Below, in pieces: positions 1 through 17,210 of a stretch of 33,924 bases of DNA. The stretch covers positions 1 through 33,924 of IMG/VR virus record IMGVR_UViG_3300050015_000813; one strand, written 5' to 3'. Both the position numbers and the translations under genes were made by a program. The stretch is from a virus. Every line of letters begins with the position of its first letter. The stretch's first letter is position 1. Under the pieces are notes generated by a model. The model did no database searches. It was not told the DNA's origin and saw only the letters and a program-made list of their open reading frames with translations.

Positions 1-161
1 AATATTGCAAGTCCTATAACTATTGTGCCCACAGGTACTATCCAGATGTTGTGTGGAAATTTATTGTTTCCTGCCCAATAGGATAAACTAAAGAATGCAA
101 AGATAATAATTATTTCCTTAATAAATGCCTTCCAGTTGATCTTTTTTAAAAATTCTTTCAT
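1..161 (-). CDS. Partial small membrane protein, C-terminus beyond the left edge
   Basis: The reading frame starts with ATG at 161-159 and stays open for 53 codons to the window edge. It begins MKEFLKKINWKAF, followed by a hydrophobic stretch (IIIIFAFFSLSYWAG) and a second one near the edge (IWIVPVGTIVIGLAI). This suggests a small inner-membrane protein with at least two membrane segments. Its ATG shares one base with the stop of the helicase gene upstream (TAATG), so it is probably translationally coupled in the same operon. Family and function are not recognisable. Confidence 0.6.
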   Translation of the reverse strand, partial: MKEFLKKINWKAFIKEIIIIFAFFSLSYWAGNNKFPHNIWIVPVGTIVIGLAI

Positions 162-2884
162 TAATAATCTATTTTAGTTGTTAAAACTGTTGCACTAATA
201 CTTGGACGGGTCAAAGCTACATATTTTATTTGATTTCTTTCCTTTAAAACCCAATTTTCATTAATATCATTTTCAAGCACAAAAACATGTGTATATGTGC
301 TACCTTGGGAATTATGAACAATAAATCCATCTGCAACAAATTGATGAATATTTTCGATTTCTAAATCATACATTTCTTCTTCACCAATTTCAATAATTTC
401 AATGATTTTATCATAAAAATAATAATTATCATAAATATCTTTTATATGTTGATTTATTGGTTTATTATTAATTTCATATAATTTAAAAATATTTTCCAAA
501 TGCCAGTAAGATAAATATTTAGCATATGTCGGAAATTTTCGAAATGATTCAGGATATATACCAGTATTTTTTGTTTGCCAAGTATTTTTATTTATTAAAT
601 CTTTTCGTACCATATCTAATATTTCACTTCGAAATGGTATATTATCGCAATTAGTTTTAATCGTGTATTTAAAATTATTTAATGTTTCGATTTTTCTATT
701 TAATCTAAATGAAATAAATTTCACATAATTGTTCATACTTGTTCCCAAAATGGTTAAAGTATATGCCTTCTTTTGTTTCCTATAATATGATATTATTCCA
801 AACTCCAATAAAATATTTTGAACTTCTTTAATTAATTTTATTGAATTGTTAACAAATCTAAGTCTACCTCTGCCTTTAATACTTCCATCACCATCAAACA
901 AACCAGCAATAAAATTTGACTTTTGTTGTAATGTTCCAATTATTATTGATTCAGGTATTGATTTATCATTGCCTTTAACATATTTTAAACCAAGATTAAA
1001 TAACTTTTCTCTCCATGCTTTATTTTCGCAATAAACATTTACGCAATTACTTTTATTTTTTTTATATGTGGAAGAACGAATGTTATTATTAATATAAAAA
1101 TTTTCTGCAAAATCAATATTTTCTTGGTCATCACCACCAATTGTTAAATCAATTCTATATTTATCATGTTTTCTATTACCAGCATAACTACCATCAGCAA
1201 CCAATAAACCCAAATAATAATTAATATCACGTTGAGTAATATCCATATTTCCAACATATGTTTTTCGATTAATTGGAATATAATCACCAACATTAAATTC
1301 TTTAAGTGGTTGAAATTCATTATATTTATTTAAAATTCTATGGTCTTCAGAACAAATAATTTCATAACCAAAAGAAGTCATCAATTTAAATGCTCTCTTT
1401 TTACCTGTATATATTTTATTCAATACTTTATTACAATTCATACCACCATTAATCACAATATCACCAATTTGAATATCTTTTAAACTAACAAACCCATCAA
1501 GTCGTTGAATTTTAGAATTTTCTGATAAACATTTGTGTCCAGTAATTGCATAACCATAATCCAAGTCCTTGACAATCACTTCACTGGTGGGTCTGTAGAG
1601 ACCATTACTATATTTGTCAATTGTGACCATCAGTAAATTGCTACGTCTGAAATCATAATATTTTGTCCACATTTTTTTATTTGCCTTACCCATTTCTTTA
1701 AAGAAATCGTGATTCTGAGCATATAGATGTAGATTCTGATGATCATAAATATCAATAATGAAGACATCCTGAGTTTTATGCTTACCACGTGCAAGGTCTT
1801 CTCTCAGTGTTACATTATATCCACTGATGCCATAACTGTTTTCTTCTTTATTGGATTTATTGACTACACGATAGTCTGCGGAATTTTCGATAATATTATA
1901 ACGTTGTTTTGAATCACTAATGCTCCTGTAACCCATAAGCAAATCACTGATTTCTACTACATCAATATCATCCCTGAATAAAGCCGTTCTAATAACTTTA
2001 TTTGCTGCCATAATCGTGTCGTTCTTCCATGCAATAACCTTTGCAAAGTCTGTATCGGCTCTGAAATCAGCAGAACTATATCTTTCAAGTATTGCCTGAC
2101 GAAATTCTGGTTTTCTAACGGTAAAAACAACACCTTCACCCTGATCGTTCATATTGGACTTCCTTAGAAAACCACCATCAAGCCTATTTAGATTGTTTCT
2201 AAGCGCATCATATATAAAAGCCAGAGGATTGGTATCATTTTGTCTTTCGATTTTTGTAAGCTGATGAAAATACTCTGTTCGTGCATCAGTGAAGACTGCG
2301 CTTTCTTTCTCACCAACTGGTGGAATTTGCGCAGGGTCGCCAACGTACAGAACTTTAGTATTGCTGCCTTTAGTTTTATCAATGATCATATCGAAAAGTT
2401 CTTTATTAATCATTGAGGCTTCATCAACAATAACGAAATTATAGTCATTGATTTTAGGTATGGCAATTGGATTGAACTTCGGGTCGTTGGGGTTGAAATT
2501 ATCCAGATCAACATCTGGTCTGAGTCCAAGTAATGCATGAAGTGTCTGCCCATCTTCACCTGTTGTGTCCATTACAACCTTCTTAGCTTTATGTGTAGGT
2601 GCACTTACCACAACACCACGATGATAGCCATCGAGTATTTTCTTTATCATTGTGGATTTACCTGTACCTGCGTAACCTGCCAGTGTGAAGAATGTCACAC
2701 CATTTTTAAGCCAAGAATTTATTTTCTGTACACCTTCAAATTGCTCCTGATTAAACGTAATTATTTTACCCGTTGGTAATTGTAATTGATTATCACTGAG
2801 TTTTTCTTTTGCTTGTTTCTTTGCATAATCGCTAAAGAGTTGTTTAAGCTCTTCTTTTTTGCTCTCTTCAATATCTTCTTCCAT
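161..2884 (-). CDS. dda: Dda/RecD-like SF1 DNA helicase interrupted by a LAGLIDADG intein
   Basis: The 907-aa precursor is an ATP-driven SF1B helicase of the T4 Dda type with a 407-aa intein (residues 452-858); the spliced product would be 500 aa, against about 440 for T4 Dda. Visible motifs are Walker A GYAGTGKST (70-78), Walker B VIVDEAS (151-157), GDPAQIPPVG (182-191) and motif VI KYVALTRP (887-894). The intein splits motif V: joining GHK (449-451) to SQGST (859-863) restores the family's HKSQGST signature. Dda-type helicases act at phage replication forks and in recombination. The start is the only ATG giving the full N-terminus, and it overlaps the stop of the 85-aa gene upstream by one base (TAATG). 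Transcription probably comes from the leftward TATCTTTG promoter near 3170. Confidence 0.93.
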   Translation of the reverse strand: MEEDIEESKKEELKQLFSDYAKKQAKEKLSDNQLQLPTGKIITFNQEQFEGVQKINSWLKNGVTFFTLAGYAGTGKSTMIKKILDGYHRGVVVSAPTHKAKKVVMDTTGEDGQTLHALLGLRPDVDLDNFNPNDPKFNPIAIPKINDYNFVIVDEASMINKELFDMIIDKTKGSNTKVLYVGDPAQIPPVGEKESAVFTDARTEYFHQLTKIERQNDTNPLAFIYDALRNNLNRLDGGFLRKSNMNDQGEGVVFTVRKPEFRQAILERYSSADFRADTDFAKVIAWKNDTIMAANKVIRTALFRDDIDVVEISDLLMGYRSISDSKQRYNIIENSADYRVVNKSNKEENSYGISGYNVTLREDLARGKHKTQDVFIIDIYDHQNLHLYAQNHDFFKEMGKANKKMWTKYYDFRRSNLLMVTIDKYSNGLYRPTSEVIVKDLDYGYAITGHKCLSENSKIQRLDGFVSLKDIQIGDIVINGGMNCNKVLNKIYTGKKRAFKLMTSFGYEIICSEDHRILNKYNEFQPLKEFNVGDYIPINRKTYVGNMDITQRDINYYLGLLVADGSYAGNRKHDKYRIDLTIGGDDQENIDFAENFYINNNIRSSTYKKNKSNCVNVYCENKAWREKLFNLGLKYVKGNDKSIPESIIIGTLQQKSNFIAGLFDGDGSIKGRGRLRFVNNSIKLIKEVQNILLEFGIISYYRKQKKAYTLTILGTSMNNYVKFISFRLNRKIETLNNFKYTIKTNCDNIPFRSEILDMVRKDLINKNTWQTKNTGIYPESFRKFPTYAKYLSYWHLENIFKLYEINNKPINQHIKDIYDNYYFYDKIIEIIEIGEEEMYDLEIENIHQFVADGFIVHNSQGSTYTHVFVLENDINENWVLKERNQIKYVALTRPSISATVLTTKIDY
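311..1531 (-). mobile_element. Intein with LAGLIDADG homing endonuclease inside the helicase
   Basis: The element covers helicase residues 452-858. It starts with Cys (CLSENSKI, block A) and ends HQFVADGFIVHN (blocks F and G), followed by Ser as the +1 extein residue; all three are standard for protein splicing. Block B reads GYEIICSEDHRIL, with the usual TxxH as S-E-D-H. Two LAGLIDADG motifs are present, LGLLVADGS (residues 558-566) and FIAGLFDGDGS (658-668), each keeping its acidic residue, so both splicing and homing look intact. The insertion in conserved motif V is typical of inteins, because imprecise loss there would kill the helicase. Confidence 0.93.
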
Positions 2885-8302: not shown

Positions 8303-8509
8303 TTATTTTTTAAGTAAGATTCCATTTTCTCTCAGGTATCCAGTCACATCCAAGCCAGATGCACCTTCAAACATAGCCAGTTCTTCCAAGCAATGACTTA
8401 TTACTTGTGACTGAGTAGCAACTTTTCCATCACCAAAATCCAGTGAATACTGAACTTCGTTGAAATATTTTTCGGCTTCATCCGACAACGTTACTGTGAT
8501 TCTTTTCAT
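8303..8509 (-). CDS. Ribbon-helix-helix-like small protein
   Basis: The 68-aa chain starts with a beta strand of alternating residues (KRITVTLSDEAEKYFNEVQ) followed by helix (TQSQVISHCLEELAMFE), the order of strand, helix and helix seen in CopG/Arc-type DNA-binding proteins. If so it would dimerise and bind an operator, perhaps regulating its own cluster. The family match is by pattern only. Its ATG overlaps the stop of the RNA ligase gene by one base (TAATG). Confidence 0.55.
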   Translation of the reverse strand: MKRITVTLSDEAEKYFNEVQYSLDFGDGKVATQSQVISHCLEELAMFEGASGLDVTGYLRENGILLKK

Positions 8510-9369
8510 TATTTTATAGTACTATTAAGTTTTTGTTTAAAAAGCGTAACGGTTTTAGTTCCAATAGCTTTTGTTGCTTCTTTTGACTGAACAATCTCTG
8601 TGCTACCTTCCCTGTAAACGTCTTCAATCATTGCTTTAATAATATCACCCATTGCTTCCATACTGGTATTTGCAGGAAATTTCTGCAGTATGTGTTCCAG
8701 ACGGAGATTAGTTACCCACTCTTCTGCAATTGCTTTTGCATCAGCAAGAACTTTAAGCTGTTCTGCATTAACTTCTCTGGGTGTCTTGGTTTCCATTTGT
8801 TCATCTGGCTTGTATTTGCAGATGACCCTATCGCCATTATTTGCACGCATTTCTTGCAGTGGTCTGAGAACAATACCTTCACGTGGATGTTTACCCATAC
8901 CATTACGAACTGCCTGAACAGAGTCATTATCTCTTTCTCTGGTAAGAGTACGTAAGGTAGTTCTGATTTTTCTGTAAAATACGAAATCCAGACCGAATTT
9001 ACTGCAAACATCTTCAGCATTTGGTACGTTAAGCCAAACATCACCGACCTGAACATCAAAGCCGATAAACTTGAGTTCTTTACCGTATGTGTGTGACATA
9101 CCTTGTTGTTTTCCACCATAGGCTTCACCATAGATAGTAACATCCTGATCAGGAAACATTTCTGCAAACATCTGAGTCAGTGCATTTTTATCGAACAATG
9201 CAGCAAATGATACATTGCTTTCACCACCACTGGAGTAGCGAACATCTTTGCTCTGGAATTTCCAGCCAATATGTGTCGAAGTCCCGTGTATCTTCTCAAG
9301 TGCATAAGCCTCTTTAAATAAGAGAATCAATTGGCTTTTATAAAGATTCTCGATGTGCATATACCCCAT
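8509..9369 (-). CDS. RNA ligase, T4 Rnl2-like
   Basis: The 286-aa enzyme has the nucleotidyltransferase motifs of the Rnl2/RNA_ligase family: motif I EKIHGT with Lys26 as the adenylated residue, YGEAYGG (80-86), KFIGFDVQ (100-107), motif IV REGIVLRP (163-170) and motif V RVICKYK (181-187). It would seal nicked RNA, most likely repairing tRNA or other RNA cut by host defence nucleases. T4 Rnl2 is somewhat longer (334 aa), so the C-terminal domain is reduced. Two HAD-type phosphatases of a family linked to RNA repair lie elsewhere in the window (13071 and 20781). Confidence 0.9.
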   Translation of the reverse strand: MGYMHIENLYKSQLILLFKEAYALEKIHGTSTHIGWKFQSKDVRYSSGGESNVSFAALFDKNALTQMFAEMFPDQDVTIYGEAYGGKQQGMSHTYGKELKFIGFDVQVGDVWLNVPNAEDVCSKFGLDFVFYRKIRTTLRTLTRERDNDSVQAVRNGMGKHPREGIVLRPLQEMRANNGDRVICKYKPDEQMETKTPREVNAEQLKVLADAKAIAEEWVTNLRLEHILQKFPANTSMEAMGDIIKAMIEDVYREGSTEIVQSKEATKAIGTKTVTLFKQKLNSTIK

Positions 9370-9390: not shown

Positions 9391-9747
9391 TTATAAATAT
9401 ACTATTGTTTGATCATTTTTTTCTTTCTGTTTATCTTCCAAATATTTCTGATGTTTCACACGAATGAGTTTAAAATATTCTTCAATATCTGGATATTCGG
9501 TAGCGAATGGAATTAATGAATACTTTTCACTGCCATAGAATGAATGCTTGAAACCAGCTTCTCTCATATTGGGAAGTGATTGTGGACAGTCTTCCTGTGT
9601 GAGATATTCACCACAAACATATGCATCAAGTATCTCTGGTACAAAGCACCAGATTTCTTTTCCCTTTTTATCAAAGCGTTTAAATTGCAAATATCGATCA
9701 GCGATATATGTTTTTAAGGGAATAATTCTATAAGCAGTTTTTTCCAT
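9391..9747 (-). CDS. Hypothetical 118-aa protein behind a possible attenuator
   Basis: The product (MEKTAYRIIPLKTYIADRYL...) is soluble, with WCFVPEILDAYVCGEYL in the middle and a charged helical C-terminus (KHQKYLEDKQKEKND). Family not recognised. An in-frame ATG at 9777 would lengthen it by ten residues, but that ATG lies inside a terminator-like hairpin, so I chose 9747. The gene lies directly after the candidate structured RNA and could be expressed by read-through of its terminator. Confidence 0.6.
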   Translation of the reverse strand: MEKTAYRIIPLKTYIADRYLQFKRFDKKGKEIWCFVPEILDAYVCGEYLTQEDCPQSLPNMREAGFKHSFYGSEKYSLIPFATEYPDIEEYFKLIRVKHQKYLEDKQKEKNDQTIVYL

Positions 9748-9756
9748 TTTAATAAT

Positions 9757-9892
9757 TTTAAATAAAAACCAGTTCATTTATCAACTGGCAAGTTAGGTTT
9801 AGTTGCCAACTTTCCTTTGTGACGGTGCTTCCTTAGTTATGGCATGTTATCCGTCATTTGAACACGCAGCCATCGTGTTAGTAATCGATGTA
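9757..9892 (-). ncRNA. Candidate structured RNA or attenuator leader
   Basis: Read on the minus strand, four stem-loops occur in about 130 bases without a leftward gene. They are AACACG/CGTGTT (9861-9879, 7-base loop), TGACGG/CCGTCA (9820-9856, with an inner TGC/GCA), TGGCAA/TTGCCA (9786-9808, 11-base loop) and CCAGTT/AACTGG (9769-9788), the last followed by TTTTTATTT. Stems three and four share 9786-9788, so they cannot form together, as in attenuators and riboswitches. A promoter-like sequence sits just upstream at 9891-9921. No match to a known RNA family is recognised. It could be an independent small RNA or a leader that controls the 118-aa gene. Confidence 0.45.
9760..9788 (-). terminator. 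Terminator-like hairpin at the end of the candidate RNA
   Basis: The minus strand carries CCAGTT, an 8-base loop, AACTGG, then TTTTTATTT. The stem has only six pairs, so it is a modest intrinsic terminator; it competes with an upstream stem for 9786-9788. Confidence 0.5.
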
Positions 9893-9921
9893 AAAGTAGT
9901 GATTCAAAAATTAATATCCAA
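9891..9921 (-). promoter_or_regulatory. Host-like promoter for the candidate RNA
   Basis: The minus strand reads TTG, 20 bases, TACTTTTA. This fits TTG-N19/21-TAnnTTTG apart from the last base (A for G). It is positioned to start transcription just before the first stem-loop. Confidence 0.4.
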
Positions 9922-9980
9922 GTATTTATATAAAAATTTTCATATGAAACCAAATTTTACTGAATCCGAATATCAAAATG

Positions 9981-10088
9981 CTAAATCAGAAGAATTTTTG
10001 GAAACTCCTTAAAGAATACTGTGAAGCCACCCTGTGGGTCTTCCACATATATTGGAGTTACTGGTATTGTTAGCATGTATACACTCAT
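9981..10088 (-). CDS. Short HicB-like fragment, 35 aa
   Basis: The frame reads MSVYMLTIPVTPIYVEDPQG, continues GFTVFFKEFPK, and stops. The pattern of hydrophobic strand, D-x-x-GG-F/Y-T-V and E-F-P resembles the first two strands of HicB-type antitoxins and of related phage proteins, but the rest of that fold is missing, and no downstream frame restores it. The ATG overlaps the stop of the 96-aa gene (ATGA) and is preceded by AGGGAGG, one of the few convincing Shine-Dalgarno sequences in the window, so it is probably translated. It may be a decayed gene or a genuine small protein. Confidence 0.4.
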   Translation of the reverse strand: MSVYMLTIPVTPIYVEDPQGGFTVFFKEFPKILLI

Positions 10089-15737: not shown

Positions 15738-17210
15738 TTATGGTTTGGTTACTGTTGCTGCATTAAGCGTTACTGCTGTTTGAGCAAGTAATCTACCTAA
15801 AACTTTACTACCAGTATTCACTGAAATTAATGTTTTACATAAAATGTTTCCACTAAAATCAACGTTTGTACCAAGAACTGCGCCACTACCCGCAACTACC
15901 CAGAAGATATTTTTAGCCTGTGCACCGTTCTGTAATGTAATTACTACGCCATTTGCTACTGTAAGGTCTTGAGCTATTTGGAATATGAATGTTGCACAAT
16001 TGTCACCACCACCATCCAATACAATGCCGTTTGTTATTGAAACACCAGAACTCCATTTGTAGATACCTTTGGTCAATGTCTGACCATTAAGATTACCTGC
16101 CATGAATTCATTAACAGGTGCTGGAACAACTAAGCCATTAGCCGTTGTAAACGCTGTATGCATATCACCACTTGTAGTCACCATATTTGCTGGTGTAGGC
16201 ACTGCATAATCTGGTGCATATACATTACCAACAACAAGACTTGATGTTGAAAATGCGCTACCAGCAGGAAGAATTAATCCAAAGCCAGTAATAGATGTTG
16301 AGGTTACAGGATTTACACCCATATCGCCAGTGATTAATGTAACACCAGTAGTTGAAATGCCAGATTCTGCAAATATTACAAAATTACCAGATAATCCTAA
16401 ATCTACGATTGTAGGACATGATACTATTATAATTAATGAGAAATTAGCTGTAACGTTTTTGTTTGCATCCATAGTAACACTTGTTGGATTGATAGTACCT
16501 AATGCATCACCACTCCAAGAATCAAACTGATAACCAGCAGCAGGAGTTGCAGTAAGTTGTACTACATCACCACCATTATATGTTGGTTGATCAGGATTTT
16601 TTACCACACTGCCATTAACTGCTGTTACATTTAAAGTAAAGGTATTGAGTAAGAAATTTGCAACAAATGCTGTGTCTTTTGTTAAGGTAAATGTATAACT
16701 TGGTGTTATTGAAACTACTGTTACACCTTTAGTCCAATTAACAAATGTATAATTTGCATTTGGTGTTGCATTAATGGTTACAGAAGAACCAGCAAGAAAT
16801 GAGCCACCACCAGTGGTTGTTCCACCAGCAAGGGGATTTGAAGATAATGTTACAGCAAAGTTTCCAGCTACTACAGGAGTAAAGTTAGCAACCAATACCG
16901 TATTTTTTATTAAAGAAAAAGTATAACTTGAACTTGTTGAAGCAACTACTGCTTCATTTGTCCAATTAGTAAAGGTATAACCTGCATTTGGTGTTGCAGC
17001 AACCGTTACGAGAGAGTCTTTTGGGAATGTACCATCTCCAATGGTCGTTCCACCAAGAAGAGGATTTGACGATAATTGTATCGTAAATTCTACTTTTGGT
17101 TGTGGGCATGTTCCAACGAGTTCTTTAAAATCGTCCTTTTTACATGTTACCAGCATGAGCACTGCAATAATTGATACTGCAATGAGTGTTAATAATTTTT
17201 TTGTTTTCAT
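15738..17210 (-). CDS. Surface lipoprotein with InlB-type repeats and DUF3494 ice-binding-like domain
   Basis: The 490-aa protein starts with a lipoprotein signal ending LVTC (Cys23) followed by KKDD, similar to the export signal that sends lipoproteins to the cell surface in Bacteroidota. Three divergent InlB B-repeats follow (about 43-112, 117-187 and 190-262), each with the GG-T/V-F pattern and GYTFTNW or GYQFDSW. The C-terminal half (about 270-490) matches DUF3494: LGLSGNFVIFAESGIST, then ITGDMGVNP, LDGGGDNCATFIFQIA, NGAQAKNIFWVVAGSGAVLG and GRLLAQTAVTL. In known proteins this fold binds ice, and some members are adhesins. It is the first gene of the cassette; no clear promoter precedes it. 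Confidence 0.85.
   Translation of the reverse strand: MKTKKLLTLIAVSIIAVLMLVTCKKDDFKELVGTCPQPKVEFTIQLSSNPLLGGTTIGDGTFPKDSLVTVAATPNAGYTFTNWTNEAVVASTSSSYTFSLIKNTVLVANFTPVVAGNFAVTLSSNPLAGGTTTGGGSFLAGSSVTINATPNANYTFVNWTKGVTVVSITPSYTFTLTKDTAFVANFLLNTFTLNVTAVNGSVVKNPDQPTYNGGDVVQLTATPAAGYQFDSWSGDALGTINPTSVTMDANKNVTANFSLIIIVSCPTIVDLGLSGNFVIFAESGISTTGVTLITGDMGVNPVTSTSITGFGLILPAGSAFSTSSLVVGNVYAPDYAVPTPANMVTTSGDMHTAFTTANGLVVPAPVNEFMAGNLNGQTLTKGIYKWSSGVSITNGIVLDGGGDNCATFIFQIAQDLTVANGVVITLQNGAQAKNIFWVVAGSGAVLGTNVDFSGNILCKTLISVNTGSKVLGRLLAQTAVTLNAATVTKP

What the first reader, a model, noticed from the sequence alone, without database searches (positions are those of the whole stretch)
9757..9921. Candidate structured RNA or switch with promoter, four stems and terminator
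In a gap with no leftward gene, the minus strand has a host-like promoter (TTG-N20-TACTTTTA), then four stem-loops, then a T run. Stems three and four share bases 9786-9788 and exclude each other, as in attenuators. The last stem overlaps the alternative ATG of the next gene. It could be a riboswitch-like leader for the 118-aa gene or a phage small RNA.
Basis: partly seen in the sequence, partly recalled or inferred. Interest (0 to 1): 0.72.

Follow-up and report, generated by a model that had tools for sequence, protein, structure and literature searches.

The report
New pseudoknotted phage RNA beside tRNAs
This stretch encodes a small RNA with a conserved folded shape that at least 17 other, mostly large bacterial viruses also carry, one copy each and usually directly after a tRNA or tRNA-like gene; no catalogued RNA family matches it and its job is unknown, though its neighbours point to tRNA and RNA repair.

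Summary
Folding energy alone is unremarkable (z -0.8), yet the minus strand at 9887-9769 belongs to an RNA family absent from Rfam. I found it in 18 other viral records (17 loci; contigs up to 365 kb), one copy each. It has four helices plus an unpredicted pseudoknot between the first hairpin's loop and the strand after an AUAAC bulge. In 15 sequences, 96% of pairs are kept with 70 two-sided changes (19 expected).

It is not a riboswitch or attenuator. The exclusive stem 3/4 pair is complete in only 4 of 15 members, downstream genes differ, and in tRNA-array phages it sits between tRNAs with no gene to control. By tool coordinates it starts 0 nt after a tRNA or tRNA-like gene in 11 loci. In the window that gene is lost; a weak promoter-like site would start transcription near the conserved 5' end. 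In all nine loci of the window's subgroup an RNA-ligase gene follows within about 1 kb; five relatives also encode Thg1. Best reading: a trans-acting phage small RNA, released by tRNA processing or its own promoter. Its biochemical role is unproven.

The parts
9769..9887 (-). Conserved structured RNA, full extent as matched by covariance model R1 (129.6 bits)
   Evidence: alignment A1. The window sequence is in the model, so its own score is partly by construction; L070 was not in the model and scores 115.9 bits.
9861..9879 (-). Hairpin P1: AACACG (9879-9874) with CGTGTT (9866-9861)
   Evidence: 91% of cells paired in 15 sequences, 5 of 6 pairs with two-sided changes
9840..9872 (-). Pseudoknot: P1 loop TGGC (9872-9869) with GCCA (9843-9840), just after the conserved ATAAC bulge (9850-9846)
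   Evidence: 93% of cells paired; GGC/GCC, AGC/GCU, CGC/GCG, GUC/GAC variants. Segments were picked by eye, so this helix carries selection bias.
9821..9855 (-). Helix P2: GACGG (9855-9851) with CCGTC (9825-9821), enclosing the ATAAC bulge, the pseudoknot strand and a variable insert
   Evidence: 100% paired, all five pairs covary; RNAalifold finds it unprompted on the plain MAFFT alignment
9795..9816 (-). Hairpin P3: AGG-AA-AGTT-GGC-AACT-AAA-CCT, nearly invariant in sequence
   Evidence: RNAalifold. Invariant pairs neither support nor refute pairing by covariation; this stretch was also the search anchor.
9764..9788 (-). Hairpin P4 (CCAGTT 9788-9783 / AACTGG 9774-9769, loop GATAAATG) plus T run 9768-9764: covarying stem with related loops, doubling as terminator in the window's subgroup
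   Evidence: 97% paired, 4 of 6 pairs with two-sided changes. T run seen by inspection in window, L001, L003, L006, L010, L050, L070; absent in L018 and in members followed by tRNAs.
9891..9921 (-). Possible promoter TTG-N20-TACTTTTA; would start transcription near 9887, the conserved 5' end of the RNA
   Evidence: Weak: one mismatch to TAnnTTTG (consensus: PMC9723704), no excess over chance for the class, not conserved in L006.
9944..10012 (+). Stub (MKPNFTESEYQNAKSEEFLETP, stop) of an endonuclease-like gene that is full length (298 aa ORF) in L006 between the tRNA-like RNA and this RNA
   Evidence: the endonuclease assignment is weak (only a zinc-finger Pfam match below its cut-off)
8509..9369 (-). 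RNA ligase gene downstream (286 aa), after a 118-aa gene of unknown function (9391-9747)
   Evidence: PF09414 E 2.6e-13, phrog_548 RNA ligase E 2.2e-27; RNA ligase downstream in relatives too

Best explanation
The region encodes a phage small non-coding RNA of about 120-160 nt: hairpin P1, a pseudoknot between the P1 loop and the strand after the AUAAC bulge of P2, a near-invariant hairpin P3 and a closing hairpin P4. It acts as a free RNA, not as a leader of the next gene. In most relatives it starts exactly at the 3' end of a tRNA or tRNA-like RNA, so its 5' end would be made by tRNA 3'-end cleavage and, in tRNA arrays, its 3' end by RNase P at the next tRNA. In the window the upstream RNA genes are gone, so a local promoter or read-through from upstream genes would supply the transcript and the P4 hairpin with its T run would end it. 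Its role is most likely in phage tRNA or RNA maintenance, for example binding tRNAs, ribosomes or the neighbouring RNA-repair enzymes. Shown: the family, structure, single copy, position next to tRNAs, and RNA-ligase linkage in one subgroup. Inferred: transcription, processing, action in trans and the role.
For: Covariation: 96.3% of cells paired, 70 two-sided changes against 19.3 in shuffles, score 0.535 against 0.148, slid structures at most 44% paired; on the plain MAFFT alignment 93.1%, 32 against 8.8. One match each in 18 records including 246-365 kb contigs, plus L070 found afterwards. Start 0 nt after a tRNA or tRNA-like: Rfam tRNA coordinates in L035, L042, L048, L049 and tRNA-like model coordinates in G001, G004, G007, G009, G014, G017, G018. 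Next tRNA 5-8 nt downstream in L035, L042, L045, L048, L049. RNA ligase within about 1 kb downstream on the same strand in all nine loci of the window's subgroup; Thg1 in five records, four of them within 3 kb.
Against: No transcript evidence. The RNA ligase is not adjacent in the tRNA-array subgroup (G008, G010, G012) nor in G014, so the functional link is partial and may reflect shared synteny. The window lacks the abutting tRNA, and L045/L046 also have none. L008/L066 has replaced P4. The pseudoknot segments were chosen by eye.
Confidence: 0.62

Rival explanations
1. Cis-acting leader: in the window's subgroup the RNA folds at the head of an RNA-repair operon and P4 with its T run acts as a regulated terminator (attenuator) for the downstream genes, perhaps sensing tRNA or RNA-ligase level.
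For: RNA ligase lies downstream within about 1 kb in all nine loci of this subgroup; P4 is followed by a T run in seven members seen here.
Against: The first downstream gene differs (118 aa, MEKEK..., an HNH-type gene, 82 aa, or the ligase itself). No gene follows in array members, where P1-P4 are equally conserved. The exclusive stem is complete in 4 of 15. L018 lies 28 nt upstream of the ligase start codon without a T run.
Confidence: 0.17
2. Structured 3' trailer: it only protects or terminates the tRNA transcript, or guides maturation of the one tRNA it follows.
For: 0-nt spacing after tRNA or tRNA-like genes; terminator in part of the family.
Against: One copy per genome even where 22-28 tRNAs are called in one locus; it follows different tRNAs; it is kept intact in the window and in L045 without a tRNA upstream; a plain terminator would not keep a pseudoknot and an invariant hairpin.
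Confidence: 0.12
3. A very short protein-coding gene: TTG GCA ACT AAA CCT AAC TTG CCA GTT GAT AAA TGA (MATKPNLPVDK) behind a purine-rich AAAGGA.
For: In window, L001, L003, L006 and L010 all differences inside this frame are synonymous (TTG/TTA, GTT/GTA/GTG).
Against: Start and frame are lost in L018, L070, L066 and all array members, while the RNA structure persists.
Confidence: 0.04

Closest known systems
GOLLD and ROOL RNAs (phage and prophage RNAs near tRNA islands; PMC12286853)
   Same: Structured phage-encoded RNA of unknown function beside tRNA genes, with pseudoknots and no known protein partner.
   Different: About 120-160 nt instead of several hundred to over 800; no Rfam match at gathering score and none to these families in lenient scans of two members; abuts the tRNA at 0 nt; linked to RNA ligase in one subgroup.
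Stable small RNAs of phage T4's tRNA cluster (RNA C and RNA D; from memory, not tested)
   Same: Small non-tRNA RNAs co-transcribed with phage tRNAs.
   Different: Homology not tested directly. BLAST of three family members against 50,697 phage records found nothing beyond chance-level hits.
tmRNA, permuted (RF04321)
   Same: tRNA-linked RNA with a pseudoknot; one relative (L048) carries a permuted tmRNA elsewhere in its tRNA array.
   Different: The element has no tRNA-like domain of its own and no conserved tag frame; no over-threshold match.

Membership tests
Conserved structured RNA family (as such) | Compensating changes in helices across diverged relatives, beyond shuffled and slid controls | tested here: met
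Conserved structured RNA family (as such) | Expressed as a discrete RNA | not testable with these tools
   no expression data available here
GOLLD / ROOL | Match to the family's covariance model | tested here: not met
   no GOLLD or ROOL match
GOLLD / ROOL | Phage-encoded RNA near tRNA islands | tested here: met
   (in relatives; the window itself has lost its tRNA-like neighbour)
Riboswitch or attenuator | Conserved mutually exclusive stems | tested here: not met
   competing stem complete in 4 of 15
Riboswitch or attenuator | Constant downstream gene or function | tested here: not met
   first downstream gene varies and array members have none; RNA ligase within about 1 kb is constant only in one subgroup
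tmRNA | tRNA-like domain plus tag reading frame | tested here: not met
   no ARAGORN tmRNA at the element and no Rfam tmRNA at gathering score there
Intrinsic terminator | Stable hairpin followed by a T run | tested here: met
   P4 plus TTTTT (9788-9764) in the window's subgroup; not in L018 or array members. Termination itself not tested.

The most novel reading that the evidence does not exclude
A previously undescribed class of phage RNA that works with RNA ligase and Thg1-type enzymes in tRNA repair or counter-defence (for example as decoy, scaffold or substrate), as part of an RNA gene cluster with a tRNA-like RNA lacking a recognisable anticodon loop and a second unknown structured RNA.
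Probability: 0.25. Interest if true: 0.88.

Novelty: new variant of a known kind. Interest (0 to 1): 0.72.

Why it matters
Structured RNAs near phage tRNA islands (GOLLD, ROOL) are conserved but unexplained. This is a small, single-copy, strongly covarying RNA of the same setting. It lies exactly at tRNA 3' ends and, in one subgroup, next to RNA-repair genes, which gives a concrete lead to function. At about 120-160 nt it is easy to make, probe, delete or pull down, so the question of what tRNA-island RNAs do for large phages becomes testable. It also shows that Rfam, ARAGORN and single-sequence folding miss such elements while alignment finds them.

Tried and rejected
Folding stability as evidence: not unusual on either strand. 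Rfam at gathering and lenient thresholds: nothing credible. Phage and plasmid records: only chance-level hits. Bacterial and archaeal genome scan with an 18-mer of the window's subgroup: four chance hits in coding DNA; this pattern would miss the GTTC variants. Chance hits of other patterns (L004, L005, L015-L017, L019-L034, L036, L037, L039-L041, L043, L071-L080) rejected by inspection or by the covariance model. Ten huge or Bacteroidota phage records (two Lak phages, seven uncultured-phage records, PTm1): no match, one 22-bit hit rejected as coding; two further records were not searched because of the size limit. Mini-ORF MATKPNLPVDK: dropped after wider sampling. Resemblances to SRP RNA loops, RNase P, twister and 23S helix 71 came from memory only; they fell at positions that vary in the family, and Rfam gave no match. 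'Relatives' of the window could not be drawn because it is a virus record.

Full report
What was checked. Taken alone they are weak. The fold is no better than shuffles (z -0.80), the plus strand folds as well, and promoter-like strings of this type are common in the window.

What decided it: relatives. A search with the neighbouring 118-aa protein gave one viral contig (L001, 78% identity) in which the non-coding stretch is also kept. DNA patterns from the core then gave further members in IMG/VR. In all, 18 viral records besides the window carry it (17 loci, since L009 and L010 give the same sequence; L045 and L046 also look like one phage). No member was found among 50,697 phage records, in plasmids or in Rfam.

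Structure. On a plain MAFFT alignment (A1) RNAalifold finds P2 and P3 without prompting, with two-sided changes in all five P2 pairs. The full structure without pseudoknot keeps 93.1% of cells with 32 two-sided changes against 8.8 in shuffles. Aligning the arms as segments (A3) and adding the pseudoknot gives 96.3%, 70 against 19.3, covariation score 0.535 against 0.148; no shuffle reaches any measure and slid structures fall to at most 44% paired. By helix: P1 91%, pseudoknot 93%, P2 100%, P4 97%; P3 is almost invariant. Caveats: segments for A3 were chosen by eye with small offsets, and relatedness inflates shuffle tests, but the slide control and the plain alignment agree.

Copy number and place. 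A covariance model (R1) finds exactly one copy in each of 18 records, including contigs of 246, 266, 299, 326 and 365 kb. L070, not used in the model, scores 115.9 bits. The RNA begins directly after a tRNA in L035, L042, L048 and L049 (Rfam coordinates) and directly after a tRNA or tRNA-like RNA in G001, G004, G007, G009, G014, G017 and G018; L003 and L044 look the same by eye. Exceptions: the window, L006 (an ORF inserted between), L010 (a deletion joins the tRNA-like 3' end to the P1 loop) and L045/L046. In L035, L042, L045, L048 and L049 another tRNA begins 5-8 nt after the element, so there is no gene to regulate.

The window's own history. In L006 a 298-aa ORF on the opposite strand lies between a tRNA-like RNA and the element. 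The window keeps only its first codons (9944-10012, plus strand), has no match to the tRNA-like model, and has no second structured RNA by motif search. The element itself is intact: all P1, P2, pseudoknot and P4 pairs form. It therefore seems to have been kept after its RNA neighbours were lost. The promoter-like site would start transcription at the conserved 5' end, but it is not conserved in L006; read-through from the upstream minus-strand genes is an alternative.

Neighbours. In the subgroup that includes the window (window, L001, L003, L006, L008, L009/L010, L018, L050, L070) an RNA-ligase gene follows on the same strand within about 1 kb, in more than one architecture: short ligases, one with a PHA02142 OB-fold domain in L006, and long ORFs in L001 and L010, the latter reading as an intein-interrupted ligase (by inspection). 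Thg1-type genes occur in five records, four within 3 kb of the RNA. In the tRNA-array subgroup and in G014 the ligase is not adjacent, so the link is to RNA maintenance in general rather than to one enzyme.

Interpretation. A leader or attenuator fits only part of the family and fails on the exclusive stems and on array members. A tRNA trailer signal does not explain one copy per genome among dozens of tRNAs. A free small RNA released by tRNA processing, or from its own promoter where the tRNA is lost, accounts for structure, copy number and placement. What it does there is not shown; action in tRNA or RNA maintenance is inferred from placement.

Host. The best protein matches of the window's RNA ligase include an uncultured 485-kb phage (53.5% identity) and, weakly, Prevotella Lak phages, and the Dda-like helicase's listed best matches are mostly Bacteroides and crAss-like phages. 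TAnnTTTG boxes, the -7 consensus reported for flavobacteria (PMC9723704), lie upstream of the RNA cluster in L003, L006, L010 and L066 (by inspection). A Bacteroidota host is likely but unproven.

Known or new. The nearest known kind is the tRNA-island RNA of phages (GOLLD, ROOL; PMC12286853). This RNA is not a member by Rfam and is far smaller. I therefore call it a new family of a known kind.

Noticed in passing
L003:1829-1932, L006:9508-9613, L010:5762-5866, L066:1640-1745, L070:13430-13542, L047:8246-8357 (all -), L001:1045-1150 (+): tRNA-like RNA of about 105 nt with acceptor, D and T arms, a long variable arm with an invariant GTGCACC, and GNRA-like or other unusual loops where the anticodon loop should be. 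Missed by ARAGORN; pairs covary. Possibly an anticodon-less tRNA mimic or decoy.
   Followed up: partly
L001:1172-1399, L050:2456-2673 (+); L003:1940-2136, L006:9622-9881, L010:5874-6075, L066:1755-1995 (-): A second unknown RNA of about 200-260 nt closed by TCTTTCTG...CAGAAAGA, preceded by GTTCTTTGAA and, in four of six, by a TAnnTTTG box; nothing credible in Rfam (L010 tested).
   Followed up: partly
L008:8339-9169 (-), L070:11023-11877 (-), and Thg1 matches in G003, G012, G017: Thg1-type (tRNA-His guanylyltransferase family) genes in these phages, mostly close to the RNA and the RNA ligase.
   Followed up: partly
L048:634-855 (-): Permuted tmRNA (RF04321, 54.4 bits; ARAGORN tag GEYAIAA) inside a phage tRNA array.
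   Followed up: no
window 161-2884 (-): Dda-like helicase interrupted by a LAGLIDADG intein.
   Followed up: no
window 15738-17210 (-): 490-aa protein with an ice-binding-like domain (PF11999, E 4e-66) and InlB-type repeats in a phage contig.
   Followed up: no
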